64,000 bases of DNA, from NCBI GenBank assembly GCA_025642065.1, contig JAODUP010000188.1, positions 600,501 through 664,500 on the forward strand. Reading direction: 5' to 3'. The notes beneath the pieces were generated by a model that made no database searches, was not told where the DNA came from, and worked only from the letters and a program-made list of their open reading frames with translations. The stretch is from Paralvinella palmiformis (lineage: Eukaryota; Annelida; Polychaeta; Terebellida; Alvinellidae). The translations under genes and the position numbers were made by a program. Positions 38,901-61,390 of the stretch are shown here, piece by piece (positions within the stretch are counted from its first letter, which is position 1; every line of letters begins with the position of its first letter).

Positions 38901-41900
38901 TAACCGACTATAGCTGGCTACTACCTGCGCCGAGAAGCATCTGTCCAGATGGGATATCGGGTGGTACAGTCCCAGTGCACCTGTTCCGGCACGCTGTGTC
39001 TGTACGATAAATGGTTTCTTGTCGGCGCAAAGTGCTCGCCGTTTTGTCAACAATGATGGATGGTAGTGGGCCATCATATACCACTACGTCGTCGGTGAAT
39101 GACGACGCCACCTCGATGATCAGCAGCAGTAGCTCTGTTCTCCTCTCAGCGCCAACCGTCGGCAGTGAAATGTCGGCGATAGCGTCGTCGGCAGATTACG
39201 CCCAGAAGATGTCGACGCCGAAGCCGACGCCGCTTTTCATACCACCGCCGACAATAGCGGGATTACCTGTCACGACGTTCTCATATATCTTCCTGGCCGT
39301 CGGCGGGGCGGCGCCGATCATCTTCATCATCGTCGTCGTCATATCGATGAAGTGCTACTCGTGGAGAAAGTACCGCCGCTATAGGCATTACCTCAGCCAA
39401 CTGGAGCCGTACAAGAACGATGCCGACTTGGAATACAGCATCCGGACTCCCGTAGTGGCCGAGTCATTGTTCGACGACTGCTCGCAGTTCAACTTCGTTC
39501 GGCCGCAGCTTCCCGGCGCCGATTTTCTCCATCCCTGTTCCGCTTCGTGCCGGAGGGATAGGGACTTGTTTCGCTATTCGCGGGAGATGCCGGACGCCAG
39601 GCTGAGCACCAGTAATCCTAACGTCTACTTCAGGGAGACACCCCTATTAGTGGTCAGTGGACTGCACGCCAAAGCTGACCAGACGGAGCAGCAGCCGCCG
39701 CCGGCTGGTGTGCCGAATGGAGGCCTACTCTGCTCATCGGAGCGAACTCCGCGGAAGAAATTCCAGCCGTGGTCCAGCGCTCGTGATTCCAAAGATACGC
39801 TGGATTGTCTATCTCAGGGTGGGAGTCACCACAGCATCACCAGCGAGGAGGCGCGTGCTCTTGCGTGCTTCGATCACATCTACAGTGACATGGAAGTCAA
39901 CGCGAGAGACTTGTCTATCGATGGATCCACGGCTGGTTCCGTACGAGGACAGGAAAATTTGGCGTTCACCGATGAGGTTAAACCAGACCAGGATGAACGT
40001 AGTCCCTGCAAAACAAATTCAGTGCACTTAACCGATGAACTTTGCATGCCACATACTTGTTCACATCCTGTATCTGGAGATGGTGATTGTAAACATCACC
40101 ATTCTAATGAGGGTTTGGAAAATCAAGACTTTTCATCTACTGTAGATGTACATAATATCAGAAACTCCATATTTTCATCTAATAATGCTAATTATAATTA
40201 CTCTTTTGTGGATCATGAACCTACAAGTTCATGTAATATGCAATCTCAGGATAAGAAACCGGACTCTGTAAGCCTGAAGAATCATGACCATGTGCTTTCT
40301 CTGTGTTCCAAATCAACTGCGAAAGATCCAGTTTTGGAGACTGGATCTCTGTCAGATTTGAAGACGGACTGTAGTAGTGGTATGCAGGCTAAAGGTGAGA
40401 GATCTTGTGCCAATAGACAATGGCCTGACAATAATGTTGATCTAACTGTGGCAGAACATAGCTACATTACATGTGATAACAGTGACTCACAGTCAGAAGT
40501 CATCAGTGATGTAGAGAAGTCAGCTATGAAGTCGTGACTGCATTTGTCAAGGGAAACAATAACTGAATACCCTCCTCCCAGCTCAGCCAGAGAATCTGTG
40601 TGAAAGAATCAAAAAGATTAGTTGCGGCCTAAAATGATTTGCTATTTATTCATTTGTGCGCCTGTGTCCATGCATGTACACAGGCATTGTTTAGTCCGTG
40701 TGTTTAATGGCTAGCAGGTTGATTTGTAAACATGGGTATTATTTGCTACTCTGCAGTTTGAATAACAAATAATACATCAGTCATGTTATATTTGTTTCAT
40801 TACTGCATTGTTCATCACAAACAGAAGCTATGTCCATTTCAGCTGTCCATGCCGTAAAATCTTAAAAAGTGGTAATTGCCCATGCAGTATTAGATATATT
40901 CTCACTAACTTCCTGCAATTCTGCCTATACTGAACTAAGATCCACTTTGTTTTCTATGATTCTCACTACACTAAACAGGATCATATCTATTTTGCCATTA
41001 AAAAAGGTTTGTTTGTCATCATCTGTTTTAGTTATGCATATAATTGTTTTCAGTCAGATTACATTGATGAGAATCTTGCCTGTCAAATAAACCACACTTC
41101 AGTCATGAATTTGCAGTATTTTCTGCCATTTTGTTTTTAATATATTTTAAGAAATTGTTTACTGTCCAATAAACATAATCCATTGTACAGTTGGTTTGTT
41201 CATGACACGTACTTTGCCATTCATTAATTTCTCTCACCGATTGATTTTGGGTGCTCACGTATTATAGTTGGTAGCACACCGTGCTTGAAGCCTCTCTAGT
41301 CGAAGATTTCAATTATAGTGTTACCTAAACAAGACATTAATTTTTTTCCTGATTAAATGAGATGGGCGACTCCGTGGTGTAACTGGTAGCGCATTCGATC
41401 ACAGTTCGAATCTCGGCATGGGCATATCTGAAGGGTGTTTCATCTTTGACTTCGCTTCATTACCATCGAAGGTCGCTCTGTCCATTTAGCCTACTATGTG
41501 CACAAAAGTGGCCGTAAAACATCAATTATCATCATCTGATTAATTGAGTGATTCACTCACTCACTCACCCATATGTGGGTGTATGAATTGGTTCTTCGAT
41601 ATGTGTGTCAGTACACAGAGATATGTGTGTCTTTTACTAACCTCATTATTCAGTGTCACAGTTCTTTAGCCAACCACCAGTTGTTTTATTTTTTTACGTA
41701 CCTTAACAACAACAAAAACGGTTTCAGATCATTAGCCCCGTCTCGAAATCAGCATAAAGTAGTAATGGCTTGCACAGCATATCATTTTCAATAACTTCTA
41801 ATTCCATTTATGCCGCACCAAAAACACTTTTTATCAAGAACACCGGTTTAATATAATTATTTTACTGAAATCTTTTATGCTGATTTATCAGTTTTAATTG

Positions 41901-52111: not shown

Positions 52112-52830
52112 GACGCTGAGAAATGGTGCCATATCAAATGTGGTACAGGCATTACTCGTGAAGAGTACAACCAGATGATCAGAGCAGGCGCATTATCATG
52201 GACATGCAGGTCATGTGTTCAAAATAGAAATTTGGTGGACTCCATGGTTTCTGTCACGGAAGAGTCTGTCATGCCTGATCCTGTTCCTGGTTGTCCTGTT
52301 CGTGGCGCTTCCCATGATGACGACACTGATGATTCAGACACCAGCATGATTGATTCTGACTCTGATTCCAGCATGGATGTATCTGCGCCATACTTATCCA
52401 TGATTTTCTGTTACTGGCAGTGTAGTGTGCGTAAACCAGTACGATGCAGGGCCAGAGTCAAAGAGCACTTTTTTAAGACGGCGTATACTATCCAGGTGAA
52501 TACTACAAAAAAGCAGCTACCTTCAACTTCTGCAGGCGACTAATGGCACTACAGTTCCTCCCAGCTGAGTATATTCATGCACAGTTCGAAGCGATGGAAG
52601 CAGCTGCATAGACATCCACCCACCATTAGTCGTCCCCTGGCATATTACAGAACGCATGTGGCTGGAAAATTGTGTGTTCCCAGTGGCGTTATGGGGTGTG
52701 TTCAACCGTAATATTCACACCAACAAGGATGTTGAGGGATCGCATCACCGATTCCATAATATAGTGACCAACCAGTCATCCCTCAACATGTACATAGCAC
52801 AAATTTATAAAAGCTCTATGTATATGTATA
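52112..52830 (+). pseudogene. MULE transposase remnant (FLYWCH-type), catalytic core deleted
   Basis: The first part reads WCHIKCGTGITREEYNQM and then LSWTCRSC, the N-terminal zinc-binding segment seen with invertebrate FLYWCH/MULE proteins. An acidic Ser/Asp linker follows, then a FLYWCH-like stretch (YWQCSVRKPVRCRARV). Immediately after comes the C-terminal segment ALQFLPAEYIHAQFE and, in another frame, WLENCVFPVALWGVFNR and NKDVEGSHHRFHN, typical of the transposase C-terminus. The central DDE domain expected between them is absent. With stops and frame changes, it cannot encode an active transposase. Confidence 0.78.
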
Positions 52831-53130
52831 TCTCTCAATGATTGTCTGTTGAATAAATGAGGTAATGAAAACAAATATTGTCTTTTTTAAATGCTCTATT
52901 TATTCACCGTAATCAATCAGTAAATATTGTTCAATAAAAGAAACTTGTCATGATGAAATCAAATATTGTCTATTTAAAATACTAATTACGAAAAAAATCG
53001 ACGGCCACATGTCCAACTGAAAATGCATGTCTGCTGTGTTAAAAGTAATTAAAACGGCGGCCAGTTGACTTTACCCATTGATGCGGCCACTTGACTCATA
53101 AAATTGGCGGTCAGTTGTCCATGGTGGCCA

Positions 53131-56100
53131 TTTGATCAACACATACGTCTCTCCACGCCACCTGTTTGACTTGGACCAAGCAACATCAGGTTCCGGCAAC
53201 TTTCTTCTTGCAGGAGACCTCAATGCCAATTCTGACCGTGGGGATCGTCCAACACCATACCAGGCCAACATCTACTAGACCAATTAAATAGATCCGAGAG
53301 CATCATAATAAATGATCCAAAAGTTCCAACCACGGTTTACAGCTCTAGACTGGATCTAGTCATCGTGTCCCCACAGCTATTCTCAGCTATACACTGGCAC
53401 CAAAATGAAAGTCTCACCTCAGACCACATAGCTAACAGCATCGATATTGCCAGTGTATTTCATAAGGCTCCAGGGATTCATATACCATCCAGATGGATCA
53501 CAGAAAAAGCAGATTGGGATCTCTTTGCGAAGAAATTAAGAAACTGTCCAGACCCGGATACCAATCCATCCCTCGACAAGCGCCTTCAATCACTACTTCA
53601 CGACGTAAACACAGCAGCGACGGAAGCAATCCCCATCTCAAGAAAAAAGGCCACCCAGTCTACTCGTTCCTTCCTTCCCCCTGAAGCAAAAAAAATGGAC
53701 GAAACAAGTAAGCCAGCTCACCAAAATCTTCAAGGCCAACCCAACCGAACGAAACAGAAAAAACTTCGTCTCTGCCAACAAGCAACCAAAAGGCAGCTCT
53801 TTGACCTCAAGAAACAACAGTGGGACAAATGTTGTAACCAGCTTGCTGAAATGAGCACAACACAAATCTGGCGACAGATCAAAAAGATAAAAGGGCACGC
53901 CCCGACAGCCACAACTGTAAACCCAAAAGTTGAAGCCAACAGACTCGTTGACCATTTCACAACTAGAGCAGACCAGACCACTCTACCCAAGAACATCATC
54001 ATGGCTCTCAAAGAACAATTACCACTAAGACAAGCGAAGTTAGCAGCAGCAAAACAGAAAAATCCAGACACAAACAGGCTGTTTACCTTCCACGAACTCG
54101 ATAATGTACTGAGAAGACACAGAAAGACAGCCCCTGGAGAGGATGGCTTTACTTACACTTTCTTCGCCAAAGCCCCACGTTTCTTCAAGAATCGAATCCT
54201 CAACCTATTCAACCAATCCTGGATCGAAGGGAAAATACCCGAACAATGGAAGACGGCAATAGTCATCCCGATCGCTAAACCAGGAGGAAAAGGCCATCGC
54301 CCCATCTTCCTATTGTCCACCCTCTCAAAGATCATGGAGAGAATGATCTTAGCAAGACTCCACTGGAAACTCCCGAAGACGAAAAATATCTTCGGTTTCG
54401 TCAAAGACAGATCAACTATAGACGCCGTCGTTCATTTAGCAACAAAGATCACAGCCAGAAAAGGCCCCAAAAGAAGAAAAGCAGTGTTCGTCGCCTTCAT
54501 GGACCTGGACAAGGCATTCGAGCGCGTTGATCATCTATCCATGCTGGACTCCCTTATCTCCTTGGGCATATCTGGGAGGATTATCACATGGATAGAGAAC
54601 TTTTTAACAAACAGAAAGTTAAAAGTAAAGATACAAGGAATCATCTCCGATCCCCACGATCTCACAACTGGCTGTCCTCAGGGGTCAACAATATCCCCCA
54701 TCATCTTCAACGGTCTCGTCGCCCAACCCCTGACTGTCACTCTACCAATATCGGTAGACATCCTTGCTTATGCTGACGACCTTGTTCTTATTTCACACGG
54801 AAGTAAACCAACAGAGAAACTCCAGAAAGCCCTAAATGCAGTAGACAAAGCAGCTAATAACTTGGGCTTATACTTCTCTCCAGCTAAGACGAAGACCATG
54901 GCTTTCAACACAACTAGACAGCCTAAATTTAACCTCGGCCTACAACACCTAGAAATTATCAACGACTATAGATATCTCGGGGTAACCATAGACAGAAGAC
55001 TCAGCTTCATTCAACACGTAGCAGTCACAAAACGCAAAGTAAACTCCAGATTCAACATGATCAAGGCCATCACCAATCTGAAGATTGGCGTCAACACCAA
55101 GATGCTTATAACCCTGTATAAGTCCTTGATACAGTCAGTTATACTATACGCTGCGCCTGTCCTACTGGCCTGCAACACAGCGTTACAGAACTTGGAAAGA
55201 ACACAACGAGCACCACTTCGCTACATATTGGGGCTACCCAACGAAACTAACTCCATTCTGCCCCTCCGACTCTTAATAAAGAAGGAGACGGCCACATATC
55301 TGACGGCCACATATCTCCTTAGAACTGCTACCAAACCCATTCAGACCGACATGATACAGCGTATCCAAGAAGAAACACAAAAAGATCCCAGAGTCTTCAA
55401 TAACGCATCATGGTCAATCAAGGCTGCCTGGCTTCAGAAAGAAATCGGGATACCTGCAACCATCCCCCCAATGTCCAAGGAACGTGCTCCATGGTTAGAA
55501 CCACCCATACAAGTAATCATCCAGAATCCCATCCAGAAGAAAGTTGACCCAGAAGGCGCAGCAATAGAAGCAACAGAGAGAATTGCCTGCTTGAATGAAA
55601 GCCGAACACCAACCATCAACATCTACACCGACGCCAGTTCCCAAGATAACGGAACTACAGCCTGGGCCTGCTTCATCAAAGAAAAAGACGAAGAGATGAG
55701 AGGCAGAATCCCAAACCACACCCCGATCACCTTAGCCGAGCTGCACGCAATCAAAGCAGCACTAATATGGATATCGAGACGGACTATCCATGAAAGAGTC
55801 ATCATCCACTCGGACTCTATGGGAGGACTAACCATCATCACCACAGCTAATTTCCACACCTACCCGGAAATCATCACAGAAATATACACCACGGCATCAG
55901 CCCTCAAGCAGCGTGGAATCCAAGTAATACTCTACTAGGTTCCAAGCCACATTAACCTTGAGGGAAACGACCGAGCCGATTAACTAGCTAACGAAGCCAC
56001 GAACCTAGACGTCATCGAATATGCCGAACATACCCCAGGCACATTCAACTATCTTGTTGACAGATTCATCTCCAATCGACTGGAATCGATCTACACAGAC

Positions 56101-56490
56101 TACACATCAGCATCAAAGGATTGGTACCAGAAGACCACTGTAGTTGGACATAATATCCTCAACAACAGATTGGCCGACACCCAGCCCAGAAGACTGCACC
56201 AGCCCGTCACCCCAAACACTATGCCGGCACTGTCAGCAAGTGTACGATCCGGTACATTATCTGCTTAACTGCCCAGCCTACCCGAAGCACCGAAGATTTC
56301 TTAAAGGTCATCTCCGCCCGGAAGACCACAAACTTCCAGACCGCCACCTAGCAGCATTGCTCATAAGGAAATCAACATTCCTACCAGACATCATAACTCC
56401 ACTTCTCCAGAAAGATCCCTACATATACCAAGGACAGATCAATAGGCGACAGCCAGGGGTTTCTACCCCAAACTTCAACAAGACAAGACC
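53131..56490 (+). pseudogene. LINE of the RNase-H-bearing group (I/R1/LOA-like), 5'-truncated and broken
   Basis: The start falls in the endonuclease (GDLNAN, then LDLVIVSP and TSDHI), with stops before 53365. A long open frame (53365-55938) carries the reverse transcriptase: FMDLDKAFERVDH (motif A), GCPQGSTISP (motif B) and YADD (motif C, 54769-54780). RNase H follows (YTDASS, ELHAIKAAL, HSDSMGGL). Two in-frame stops near 55936 and 55981 fall where Trp and Gln are expected, interrupting the last RNase H motif (VPSHINLEGNDRAD). A CCHC-like knuckle (CRHCQQVYDPVHYLLNC) ends the protein. The imperfect 12-bp target repeat ccatggyggcca flanks the insertion at 53119-53130 and 56787-56798. Confidence 0.92.
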
Positions 56491-56786
56491 GCCCCTATGG
56501 ACTAGTGGATAAGAGCTTGGGCCCCCGTACCCATAGTCCGTGCTGTTCGGGAGGCCGGAGGTTCCCGGCCGCGACATTATAGTAGGAGGAGGTTTTAGTC
56601 CAACCAGGCAACTGGTAAGGTTTTTTTTCTCCTCCGAAATTGACTTCTAAAGTAAACTGAGGTTCCACCATATTAAACAACTCATAGTTCGCCAATCGTC
56701 ACAACAAAAGCCAACACCAGGTGGCTGTGCCCAATAGGCGACAGCCAGGGGTTTTGACCCCAAACTTCAACAAGAACAAGACAAGA
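56491..56786 (+). mobile_element. tRNA-derived SINE, family D, with a LINE-type 3' tail
   Basis: The head has ctatggactagtggataag (A-box-like) and ggaggttcccggcc (degenerate B box). The last ~85 bp, aacaccaggtggctgtgccc and aataggcgacagccagggg through acaagacc, repeat the 3' end of the LINE directly upstream (56437-56490) and the 3' UTR of the LINE copy at 4.7 kb. It sits exactly at the LINE's 3' end. It could instead be a duplicated LINE tail with an inserted tRNA-like segment. Confidence 0.7.
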
Positions 56787-57066: not shown

Positions 57067-57142
57067 ATGAGTTCGACAACACCTGCCAGTGGGATTTTCC
57101 GATTTAACGTAGCCATTTTATGTTTTCAAGTAAAACTCACAG
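57067..57142 (+). CDS. Possible first coding exon (MSSTTPASG...)
   Basis: The ATG opens 25 codons, including FRFNVAILCFQ, and ends at actcacag followed by gtaagt, a very strong donor, in phase 1. The hydrophobic stretch is weak for a signal peptide. The next coding exon is unknown: the receptor exon at 58561 has no acceptor in the right phase, so an intermediate exon would be needed. It could be the 5' end of the receptor gene, of another gene, or chance. Confidence 0.3.
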
Positions 57143-57750
57143 GTAAGTTCAGTCATAAGGAAATAGTGGATTTGTATAAAGGATATGTTTTGACAGTAAG
57201 GTCGCAATTTGTCATGTGTCTGATAAGTCCACGCTCTAATAGGGCGTTAACATTTAGCCTGAATTGTATAATTAAGAGTCTATAATAGCTCACATGTAGA
57301 TATAGTGAGATAACTCAAGCCCAGACTTAAATACTGCTAACTGCTTCCTGTTATATTACCACAAAGCGCAGACAACGGAAAGGTAAAAAGCACACTTCAG
57401 TCCAAACTTAAATTACTGGTTTGTGTTTGTTCCGTGGTCAAATGTCTTTTTTTAAATTATCGGATGCCGTTGTTCTGTTATCTATAGTCTAATAACAATC
57501 ATGGCGGTATTGTTTCACACCCGGAAAAACTGGCGCGAATTCTCTCACTGCCTGATAATTAGTAACACTTTTAACTACTATATACGATTGGCGACATATG
57601 GACCTGTTTTAGGAGACGAACACGCATGCACTTTACATGCAGTTTGTATAATTCATTAGAATATATTATTATATGTTTGGCTTGCAACCTTAATTGTGCC
57701 TAACAATAGGATAGTTATCTTATTAATTATATATGATATCAGATATCATA

Positions 57751-58560: not shown

Positions 58561-61323
58561 ATGATGAACAGGAAGTGTGATTGGGATTCATTCGCAGAAC
58601 CTCTGACAGGTGGAAAAACATGCACTAATTGCATCTTAGTCTGTCATCCAGTGTACCAAACCCCACATCTCTGCCAGCAATATTGTCCAGGTAAATAAAA
58701 TTATAATAGGGATAACCTTAGAAAGTATACAGTTAAATCTATGAGAAGCATATATATATATATATATATACAAATGTGGGAATATTTTTTTGATGGGAGA
58801 GTTTTGTAATGAACACACACACACACACTTCATTCTTGTTCACCATTACATGTATGTTTGTTTGTTTTTAAATATTTTCAGATTATTTAGAAGCAATTTC
58901 TACCAGTTTCCTGCCATTTAGCGTAACACCTTCAAGCATCCACAATGACAACATAATAGTTCATCCCACCACAGTTTACATTATTTTGACACTGGTAATA
59001 GTAATTTTAGCTTGTCTTTATCTGGTGTCATGGCGGTTTCATAAGAAGATATATAAAGGTAGGTTAAATGTACATGTTATTAAGTGATTACGGCTAACTA
59101 CCAACTCAGTGTGGTATTTCTTTAGTATAAATTTATTTCCTTAAGTATTTCCTCCTCCATTATAGGTAGAGGAAAGAAGCAACATAAAAAAGATTGTAAA
59201 GATGTTGAAGATGGGCCACTAATGGGTGATGACACTAAGCGGAAAACAGTTTCTCCCAAGAGTAATGCATCATCAAGTGGAGCATGTTCAGGACAGAGCT
59301 CAAACCAATTTGTAACTCCCAGAACTAGCAGCTCAGAAAATGACTTGATCTCATGTGATAAGTTAGCAACTGGGCTTACCACAGGTGGTGACGCAACAAG
59401 GAGGTTGGCCTCGGGTGTAAGTTTGGGGAACAAGTCTGTCATGGGAAGTACCACACCAAAAAGATCCAACTTAGACAGTGAATCAAGAGTTTGTTATGCC
59501 ACAGATAGTGGTTTAACAAGTAATTGTTCTGCAATGAATATATCCATTGCTTCAAAACGTATGCAGACAGGAAGTACAGCTCCATTTTATATATCATTAC
59601 AGAGTAAGTAGATATATCAGTTGTTAATCTTTTGCAGTTATTGATCTGTTGGAAAATAAATAGTCAGTATAGGTAAATGGCCTACATATTGATAGTTTGT
59701 GCAGAACAGTTATGGCATTTTCTTGACATTTAAGATTCGTCAGTTAAAGTAATGTCCAAAAGATCCTTGTTCTAACATATAAGAGAATGCGCGATGAGAC
59801 CATCTCTTTACTTAATATTGGTGTTACAAACCTAGAAATCAATCCAAAATGAACTGATGTCAATTTACTCTTTATAGTAACAATCTTGCAAAATATTTCC
59901 CTATGACTGAGTGTAATGTCTCTTTTAAGGTGGATGTATACAATAAATGCTAAATATCTAATGATACAGATTGATTTCTGTAAACAGTTCGTTCATTTTC
60001 AAGGTAGACGTACAAATATGTTAGAGCATTATGATGGGAGCATGCAAACATCAGCAATATCTTGGCAGTACGTAATGAGTGCTTATGATGCCATTAATTG
60101 CAACCTCCATGAGTAAGTTGAATGTCGTTCTTATTGTGGTATGTTTGCATATGACTGTATTTACTAATTTTTTTCCATGCTCTGCCTGTTGCTTATTTGT
60201 ATGTCTGTTCAGCACTAATTTTAAATTGACAATTGCTCAGTTAATGCCTAGCTTTTCTATGGATTCTAAATGTATTTCCGCCAGTACATTCCAGGAATGC
60301 ATATGTCATCTGTATCTGTACATTTTCAGAATGAACTGGATTGTGGGATGCATACTGTCTTACAATAAAATACAAGTGGTTGTTGACCAAGAAAGGGCCA
60401 GTGATGAGACCCAGCTGCATAATCACATAAAAAACATCATACCAGAAAACATTCCCAGTGAGGTGTACCAGTTAACATTCAATACACCGTCACTAAGAAC
60501 ACGATGTGGACAATATGGTACTGGTTGTATGATAATTAATGACAGGGGAATGAGTGCAAAGGTGACTCTTCTAGCACTGAGCGTGAATCAGATCACAAAT
60601 GTTACAGAGGTGTTTGCATTCACTGTTGCTCATCTGCTCAAAGAAGGTGACAAATGCCAGTTGCAATGTAATTGTAGCTCAAAGATCATTCATCAGGAAG
60701 ATGCAACCTGTTTGGGCCACATTGATACAGTTAAAGAGGAAGTGGTACATAACATCAAGCATAAACTATATGATCTGTCTTTGCTCAGAATTCCAGCTGT
60801 CACATCCCTTGATAATGCATGTCGATTTATTGCAAAAGGTCGGCAAATTACTTTTGATATTGACGTACAAAAATGTGACATCTTTCCACATACCATGATG
60901 TCCGGTAGGAAGGTCCTGATATTTGCCGATCACTCCAGTACACCAATCGCTGGCTGCATAGATGATGAGGCAGTGTTCACTTGTGTCACTAATCTATCTA
61001 GAAAGCAACAAGTGATAAACCTTATCCAGATCAAGTGCATAGATACTAACAAATCATTTGATATTGGTGGAATAAGTGGTAGCCTTGTAGCTTGGCATCC
61101 CGATTATAATTGTGATGATGATGAAGTTATTAGAGTGGATGCATTTGCTTTTATTGTTGGTACAAATGTTGCAAATCCCCAAAAGGCATTTGCCCTGCTG
61201 CTCTGGGAACAGATGCGGAAGCTTTTCCAAAACAATAAATCACTGGCTCACCTTGAAAAATCCATTGCATTCAAAAGTACCCCTTTAAGTGATACTGGAT
61301 TCTATTCCAAGTGTGACTATTAG
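58561..61323 (+). CDS. BCMA/TACI-like TNF-receptor ectodomain + TM + cytoplasmic trypsin-like (PA clan) protease domain
   Basis: Exons 58561-58690, 58882-59058, 59166-59603, 60004-60112, 60330-61323; AG/GT junctions, compatible phases, 1848 nt (615 residues). Residues 6-42 have six cysteines (C6, C21, C24, C28, C38, C42) with WDS after the first, very close to the single cysteine-rich domain of BCMA, a receptor for BAFF/APRIL. No signal peptide precedes it, as in type III receptors of that subfamily. Residues 75-93 form a membrane helix followed by WRFHKKIYKGRGKK, so the rest is cytoplasmic. Residues about 104-285 are Ser/Thr/Lys-rich linker. Residues about 340-590 resemble a PA-clan fold: YGTGCMI, FAFTVAHLL (His386), LYDLSLLRI (Asp433), GGISGSLV (Ser534). 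Spacings of 47 and 101 resemble chymotrypsin (45 and 93). No TRAF-binding motif or death domain seen. Start uncertain: ATG 58561 or 58564, or an upstream exon. The domains could also belong to two transcripts. Confidence 0.78.
59655..59660 (+). terminator. Possible premature poly(A) signal after receptor exon 3
   Basis: If the exon 3 donor at 59604 is not used, translation ends at the TAG at 59609-59611, and AATAAA follows within 50 nt. That would give a roughly 250-residue receptor with a cytoplasmic tail and no protease-like domain. Confidence 0.35.
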
Positions 61324-61384: not shown

Positions 61385-61388
<4 letters not shown>

Positions 61389-61390
61389 AA
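61385..61390 (+). terminator. Poly(A) signal of the receptor-protease gene
   Basis: AATAAA lies 62 nt after the stop codon, directly after an (AT)n array. The position is typical of a short 3' UTR. Confidence 0.6.

What the first reader, a model, noticed from the sequence alone, without database searches (positions are those of the whole stretch)
58561..61323. Receptor-protease fusion: BCMA-like TNF receptor with an intracellular trypsin-like domain
Seen: five exons whose splice phases join without a stop; a six-cysteine N-terminus matching BCMA/TACI in spacing; one membrane helix with basic residues after it; and a C-terminal domain with His386, Asp433 and Ser534 in PA-clan motifs at near-chymotrypsin spacing. 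Known: BCMA/TACI/BAFF-R receptors signal through TRAF-binding tails, and cytosolic trypsin-like domains occur as effectors in invertebrate immune and death proteins. Inferred: ligand binding could directly cluster or activate a protease under the membrane, an architecture I do not know to be described.
Basis: partly seen in the sequence, partly recalled or inferred. Interest (0 to 1): 0.92.

Follow-up and report, generated by a model that had tools for sequence, protein, structure and literature searches.

The report
Cell-surface receptor fused to serine protease
An invertebrate gene appears to encode a small cysteine-rich cell-surface receptor whose cytoplasmic end resembles a trypsin-like protease, so that binding something outside the cell could directly switch on protein cutting inside it.

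Summary
Five GT-AG exons join in frame into 615 aa with six N-terminal cysteines, one membrane helix, a Ser-rich tail and a C-terminal domain with His386/Asp433/Ser534. A two-sequence S1 profile from this genome's own trypsins aligns to exactly those residues and outscores 300 of 300 shuffles and 126 of 126 other ORFs. One gene is favoured: a locus on another contig (C2319) shows a related cysteine exon, a membrane exon, a tail-like frame, an E4-like candidate and an E5-like exon start with matching phases, though membrane, tail and E4 parts match by position and phase, not sequence. Two related cysteine exons exist elsewhere, so the ectodomain is a family. "BCMA" is unproven: no Pfam match; likeness mostly cysteine spacing. 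Not shown: transcripts, protease fold (AF2 pLDDT 35), activity, a protease in the C2319 paralog. The idea has precedent: a cDNA-confirmed amphioxus TNFR-caspase transmembrane fusion (PMC2575513, passages). This one has a different protease clan and a minimal ectodomain. New variant of a known kind; receptor-protease architecture likely (0.72).

The parts
58561..58690 (+). Exon 1: start ATG-ATG and six-cysteine ectodomain (CRD), phase-1 donor
   Evidence: related exons in L043 and L044, six cysteines plus D, E, V, Y, T, P, P invariant; scores reached by 0 (L044) and 1 (L043) of 5000 Cys-fixed shuffles
58882..59058 (+). Exon 2: stalk, membrane helix (about residues 73-95) and basic stop-transfer
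   Evidence: hydropathy up to 2.85; membrane exon of phase 1-1 at the same place in L048 (borders chosen by eye, no sequence match)
59166..59603 (+). Exon 3: basic, then Ser/Thr-rich linker; none of six TRAF or BAFF-R type patterns
   Evidence: open in 64 of 20000 random stretches
60004..60112 (+). Exon 4: short exon (phase 1 in, 2 out) needed to bring exon 5 into frame after exon 3
   Evidence: in L048 a candidate with the same phases ends ...YDIIMASQI|GTAAGT, one of 41 candidates, score only 21 (148)
60330..61323 (+). Exon 5: N-terminal segment, then PA-clan (S1-like) protease-like domain with H386, D433, S534; stop codon 61321-61323
   Evidence: E5-like exon start in L048 (0 of 10000 shuffles of the 86-residue piece, 3 of 1000 of the whole 124-residue frame)
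61385..61390 (+). AATAAA, candidate polyadenylation signal shortly after the stop
   Evidence: the hexamer also occurs at 59655 and elsewhere, so weak on its own
57067..57142 (+). Possible upstream (5'-untranslated) exon ending in a perfect donor (CAG|GTAAGT at 57143); not joinable to exon 1 as coding sequence
   Evidence: role inferred

Best explanation
One gene for a single-pass membrane receptor. Shown by sequence: a small six-cysteine domain, a membrane helix with basic residues behind it, a Ser/Thr-rich linker, and a C-terminal domain that aligns to S1 proteases with His, Asp and Ser in place. Inferred: N-terminus outside without a signal peptide (as in BCMA/TACI, recalled), protease in the cytosol. 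Likely mechanism (inferred): an oligomeric ligand, perhaps one of the TNF-like proteins encoded in this genome, clusters the receptor; proximity lets the protease domains act on each other or on a membrane-near substrate, giving a one-step route from surface binding to intracellular proteolysis in place of TRAF or death-domain adaptors. Splicing of exon 4 could set whether the protease is included, because exon 3 joined straight to exon 5 stops at once.
For: Frame and splice sites. The stop that would end exon 3 (59609-59611) lies within eight bases after the exon end at a GTAAGT donor, as expected of an internal exon. Motif order GxG/H/D/GxSG in 0 of 300000 shuffles, without GxG 2 of 300000 (patterns written after seeing the sequence). 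hhalign with the genome's own S1 pair hits H386/D433/S534 exactly; score 25.97 against a maximum of 24.33 in 300 shuffles and 19.61 in 126 other ORFs (the listed best of these are 100-152 residues, shorter than the 330 of the query). Locus L048 on another contig: related CRD exon with phase-1 donor, phase 1-1 membrane exon, basic tail-like frame, E4-like candidate (1 to 2), then AG|A-ATG exon MPWIICCVI... aligned to MNWIVGCIL... (143, 145, 148). TNF ligand family: two places at or over the cut-off in this genome. Precedents: amphioxus TNFR-caspase with cDNA; BlaR1, a receptor with a cytoplasmic protease domain.
Against: No transcript. No TNFR or protease match in Pfam, NCBIfam or PDB sequences (only sub-cut-off or unrelated matches). 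Trypsin_2 did not list exon 5 in the own-genome search. HtrA and pooled profiles give noise (13.58 and 14.48; controls up to 22.05 and 16.38). AF2 without relatives failed. No relative outside this genome found. The E5-like match of L048 scores 52, next best frame 37; tblastn E only 0.06. The L048 membrane, tail and E4-like parts do not align in sequence. No His/Asp/GxSG set was found after the E5-like start in the about 4 kb read; more could not be fetched. L047 has no convincing exon-5 likeness in 6 kb. GDSGG reads GISGS here. The cytosolic side rests on charge distribution alone.
Confidence: 0.72

Rival explanations
1. Two neighbouring genes: a short receptor ending at 59611 (exon 3 read through its donor) and a separate intracellular protease-like gene starting in exon 4 or 5.
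For: In-frame stop just after the exon 3 donor and an AATAAA at 59655; ATGs in exon 4 and at the start of exon 5. A pair of genes duplicated as a block would also keep the order seen in L048.
Against: Donor 7 of 9; phases fit across all joins; phases also fit at L048, which a block of two separate genes would have no reason to keep.
Confidence: 0.12
2. One gene, but the C-terminal domain is a catalytically dead PA-fold domain used as an interaction or sensing module.
For: Very divergent, no family match; G-I-S-G-S in place of G-D-S-G-G; the paralog may lack the catalytic part.
Against: All three catalytic residues and GxSG are kept in a sequence that is otherwise highly divergent, which suggests selection.
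Confidence: 0.3
3. The C-terminal domain is not a protease fold at all and the three residues are a chance resemblance.
For: Structure prediction failed; Pfam and PDB sequence searches show no protease; HtrA profile is noise.
Against: 0 of 300000 shuffles for the motif order; 0 of 300 shuffles and 0 of 126 real ORFs reach the S1 profile score, and the alignment itself chooses the three residues.
Confidence: 0.12

Closest known systems
Amphioxus TNFR-caspase transmembrane protein (Brafl1_82667; Genome Biol 2008 9:R123, PMC2575513, passages seen)
   Same: Extracellular receptor domain, membrane span and an intracellular protease domain in one protein; proposed shortcut from signal to cell death, cDNA-confirmed there.
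   Different: Caspase (clan CD cysteine protease, recalled) instead of a PA-clan serine protease-like domain; a recognised TNFR domain there, a minimal six-cysteine CRD without family match here.
BCMA / TACI CRD2 (TNFRSF17 / 13B)
   Same: Six-cysteine CRD with nearly the same spacing; no signal peptide and a membrane helix close behind (recalled).
   Different: No family match; residues between cysteines at chance level; no TRAF motif by the simple patterns used; they carry no enzyme (recalled).
Drosophila Grindelwald (PMC8024323, passages seen)
   Same: Protostome TNFR with one small CRD; its C2 module C-x3-C-x11-C-x3-C resembles C24-x3-C28-x9-C38-x3-C42 here.
   Different: Eight cysteines (X2-C2); tail with Veli and Traf2 binding domains, no protease.
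Crassostrea virginica receptor-like TRADD-N expansion (PMC8195603, section 10 read)
   Same: Cysteine-rich ectodomain, membrane helix, intracellular immune effector or adaptor domains, lineage-specific.
   Different: DED and TRADD-N there, none found here by Pfam; no trypsin-like effector is named in that section.
BlaR1 beta-lactam receptor (PMC7394692, passages seen)
   Same: Ligand binding outside activates a protease domain of the same protein inside.
   Different: Bacterial, metalloprotease (recalled), unrelated domains.

Membership tests
BCMA/TACI branch of the TNF receptor superfamily | Sequence-profile match of the CRD (PF09257, TNFR families) | tested here: not met
   No TNFR-type family at E<=10; PF09257 listed 14 sub-cut-off places in the genome, none at this exon (67)
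BCMA/TACI branch of the TNF receptor superfamily | Six-cysteine spacing of the single CRD | tested here: met
   C-x14-C-x2-C-x3-C-x9-C-x3-C here, x12 at the first gap in both related exons; BCMA x12,2,3,8,3 (95)
BCMA/TACI branch of the TNF receptor superfamily | Similarity beyond the cysteines | tested here: inconclusive
   Exon 1 vs BCMA: 30 of 5000 full, 410 of 5000 Cys-fixed shuffles; vs TACI2: 57 and 629 of 5000; a BCMA-TACI profile ranks it first of 5015 peptides but at E 0.44 (98). Three-CRD profile vs BCMA: prob 55, 0 of 100 full, 9 of 100 Cys-fixed; vs TACI2: 1 and 16 of 100 (143)
BCMA/TACI branch of the TNF receptor superfamily | TRAF-binding tail | tested here: not met
   None of six TRAF or BAFF-R type patterns (recalled) in the tail or the protein
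BCMA/TACI branch of the TNF receptor superfamily | Binds a TNF-fold ligand | not testable with these tools
   TNF-family places exist in the genome, no binding data
PA-clan (S1-like) serine proteases | His/Asp/Ser in order at barrel-like spacing with GxSG | tested here: met
PA-clan (S1-like) serine proteases | Curated profile match (Trypsin, Trypsin_2) | tested here: not met
PA-clan (S1-like) serine proteases | Double beta-barrel fold | tested here: inconclusive
   AF2 single-sequence model pLDDT 35 (37); too poor to search
PA-clan (S1-like) serine proteases | Proteolytic activity | not testable with these tools
   needs protein
TNFR-caspase fusions of amphioxus | Caspase domain | tested here: not met
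   No caspase family in Pfam at E<=10 (9)
Bivalve receptor-like TRADD-N proteins | DED and TRADD-N domains | tested here: not met
   None in Pfam at E<=10 (9)

The most novel reading that the evidence does not exclude
A family of animal single-pass receptors, with a minimal TNFR-type six-cysteine ectodomain, in which ligand-driven clustering directly activates a cytosolic PA-clan serine protease on the same chain: serine-protease signalling from the cell surface inwards, parallel to and independent of caspase recruitment.
Probability: 0.4. Interest if true: 0.82.

Novelty: new variant of a known kind. Interest (0 to 1): 0.64.

Why it matters
Animal receptors normally recruit proteases through adaptors; a receptor that carries its own is known from the amphioxus TNFR-caspase. 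A serine-protease version in another lineage would show that the shortcut arose with a different protease clan, and would give a one-chain system in which ligand, clustering and proteolysis can be tested directly.

Tried and rejected
Protein relatives: two searches of 5.8 billion proteins with the protease part found only the window's own entry P0002; viral contigs none. Whole-genome copies: exon 5 single at E<=10; the spliced 990 bases matched only their own five exon pieces, so no retrocopy to prove splicing. No paralogs within 110 kb either side by tblastn. AF2 of exon 5 and of exon 1 (pLDDT 56, helices at 21-28 and 35-41) gave nothing usable; Foldseek with the latter one chance hit at E 9.8. 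HtrA profile: noise (79, with three of the four HtrA loci). Codon score: no help. PADLOC hit of exon 5 to a CARF-HEPN model (E 0.0006, residues 263-303) taken as spurious: short segment after the triad. A plant NAL1-like origin of the domain came to mind from memory; no tool result supports it (paper listing only). A signal-peptide exon at 57067-57142 was rejected as coding for this protein: phase 1, while the acceptors I saw before the cysteines are of phase 0 or 2 (read). PF00020 (classical TNFR repeats) in the own genome was asked once and not answered, so other TNFRs of this genome were not surveyed.

Full report
What is there. Donor matches to the consensus are 8, 8, 7 and 6 of 9; 15 of 314 GTs in 57-62 kb reach 7 (103). 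Exons 3 and 5 are open far beyond chance (64 and 0 of 20000 random stretches); exons 1, 2 and 4 only modestly (1673, 828, 2605 of 20000). The genome (594 Mb, unnamed) shows this gene once.

One gene or two. The serious doubt was a receptor gene followed by a protease gene. Joining exon 3 directly to exon 5 stops at once, so exon 4 is required. The best evidence is a second locus. An own-genome search with the first 103 residues listed eight places: two are this gene, six are weak (E 0.09 to 4.5). I fetched four of those six. Two carry a cysteine exon of the same spacing ending in CPG: C2319 (L044, then a GTAAGT donor) and C2087 (L043, then GTGATC; it has a seventh cysteine). Of the other two, C1991, the best-ranked, gave no tblastn hit and C2216 only a partial one without the cysteine series. 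In C2319 (L048, reverse strand) a membrane exon of 162 bases keeps phase 1-1 (borders chosen by eye), a basic tail-like frame follows (borders not pinned), an exon candidate enters in phase 1 and leaves in phase 2 at GTAAGT with ...YDIIMASQI, and the next exon begins AG|A-ATG as MPWIICCVI..., like AG|A-ATG MNWIVGCIL... here. That last match scores 52, next best frame of the locus 37; 0 of 10000 shuffles of the 86-residue piece and 3 of 1000 shuffles of the whole 124-residue frame reach it; tblastn gives E 0.06. Low shuffle counts also arose for some chance frames of the two loci (1 and 7 of 1000), so score and position carry the claim. Membrane and tail parts do not align in sequence, and the E4-like exon was one of 41 candidates with a score of 21. 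A block duplication of two separate genes would also keep order, though it need not keep phases. C2087 (L047) has a membrane-plus-tail frame and no convincing exon-5 likeness in 6 kb.

The ectodomain. The three cysteine exons share all six cysteines plus D, E, V, Y, T, P, P; scores against exon 1 are reached by 0 (L044) and 1 (L043) of 5000 Cys-fixed shuffles. It is a family. Kinship to BCMA is weaker: exon 1 against BCMA scores 43, reached by 30 of 5000 full and 410 of 5000 Cys-fixed shuffles, while BCMA against TACI scores 58 with 0 and 18 (98). The three-exon profile gives BCMA probability 55 percent, 0 of 100 full and 9 of 100 Cys-fixed shuffles, and TACI2 11 percent, 1 and 16 of 100 (143). 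PF09257 finds nothing here. I call it TNFR-like in build, membership open. Two places in the genome were listed for the TNF ligand family, E 0.0007 and 0.04 (133).

The protease-like domain. Pfam, NCBIfam and PDB sequence searches show no protease. A two-sequence S1 profile from this genome's own trypsins (L037, L038) aligned to exon 5 scored 25.97, with its His, Asp and Ser on 386, 433 and 534; 0 of 300 shuffles (maximum 24.33) and 0 of 126 ORFs of 100 residues or more (maximum 19.61) reached that. An HtrA profile did not find it, nor did the two sets pooled. GxSG is kept but the residue before the serine is isoleucine where trypsins have the zymogen aspartate, which fits a protease not activated by N-terminal cleavage (inference; S1 chemistry recalled). 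AF2 without relatives failed.

Mechanism. Shown: parts and order. Inferred: N-terminus outside, tail inside (basic residues after the helix); clustering by a trimeric ligand; protease action in trans or on a membrane-near substrate; no TRAF motif by six recalled patterns. Exon 4 as an on/off splice switch is a prediction.

Literature. The amphioxus paper describes a cDNA-supported transmembrane TNFR-caspase (PMC2575513, passages). The oyster section of PMC8195603 (section 10 read, 107; passages elsewhere) describes cysteine-rich, membrane, DED, TRADD-N proteins with varied C-termini. Grindelwald: PMC8024323, passages. BlaR1: PMC7394692, passages. Oyster TNFR: PMC4346834, passages. TNF ligand evolution: PMC7674686, passages. 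No TNFR or CRD fusion to a cytosolic serine protease showed in the listings of searches; the library holds open-licence papers only, and the phrases of 124 were narrow.

Verdict. A real, probably single gene for a receptor with a serine-protease-like cytoplasmic domain, with relatives of its ectodomain at two other loci; the general idea has a precedent with caspases, this combination was not found. Catalysis, topology and transcript remain to be shown.

Noticed in passing
52112-56512: LINE-type retrotransposon remains on the plus strand (53236-55938: reverse transcriptase, RNase H and, below cut-off, endonuclease by Pfam) directly upstream of the gene; the outer limits are my guess.
   Followed up: partly
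39011-40537: 508-aa open frame with one strong membrane-helix-like segment and a long tail, no Pfam match at E<=0.1; possibly another single-pass receptor exon.
   Followed up: no
L032, L033, L034 (G000:C2134, C1815): Contigs of the same assembly with HtrA-type genes in long open frames, one beside a UvrB-like frame (recognised from memory): probably a bacterial symbiont or contaminant.
   Followed up: no
L047 (G000:C2087:22450-28450): Third locus with a related cysteine exon, followed by a 333-aa frame with membrane helix and a duplicated HEALVAEHVERxHGCSxFNEYVLTGDDNIQL segment in the tail.
   Followed up: partly
57143: The only perfect CAG|GTAAGT donor in 57-62 kb, upstream of the gene, without an in-frame partner.
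   Followed up: partly
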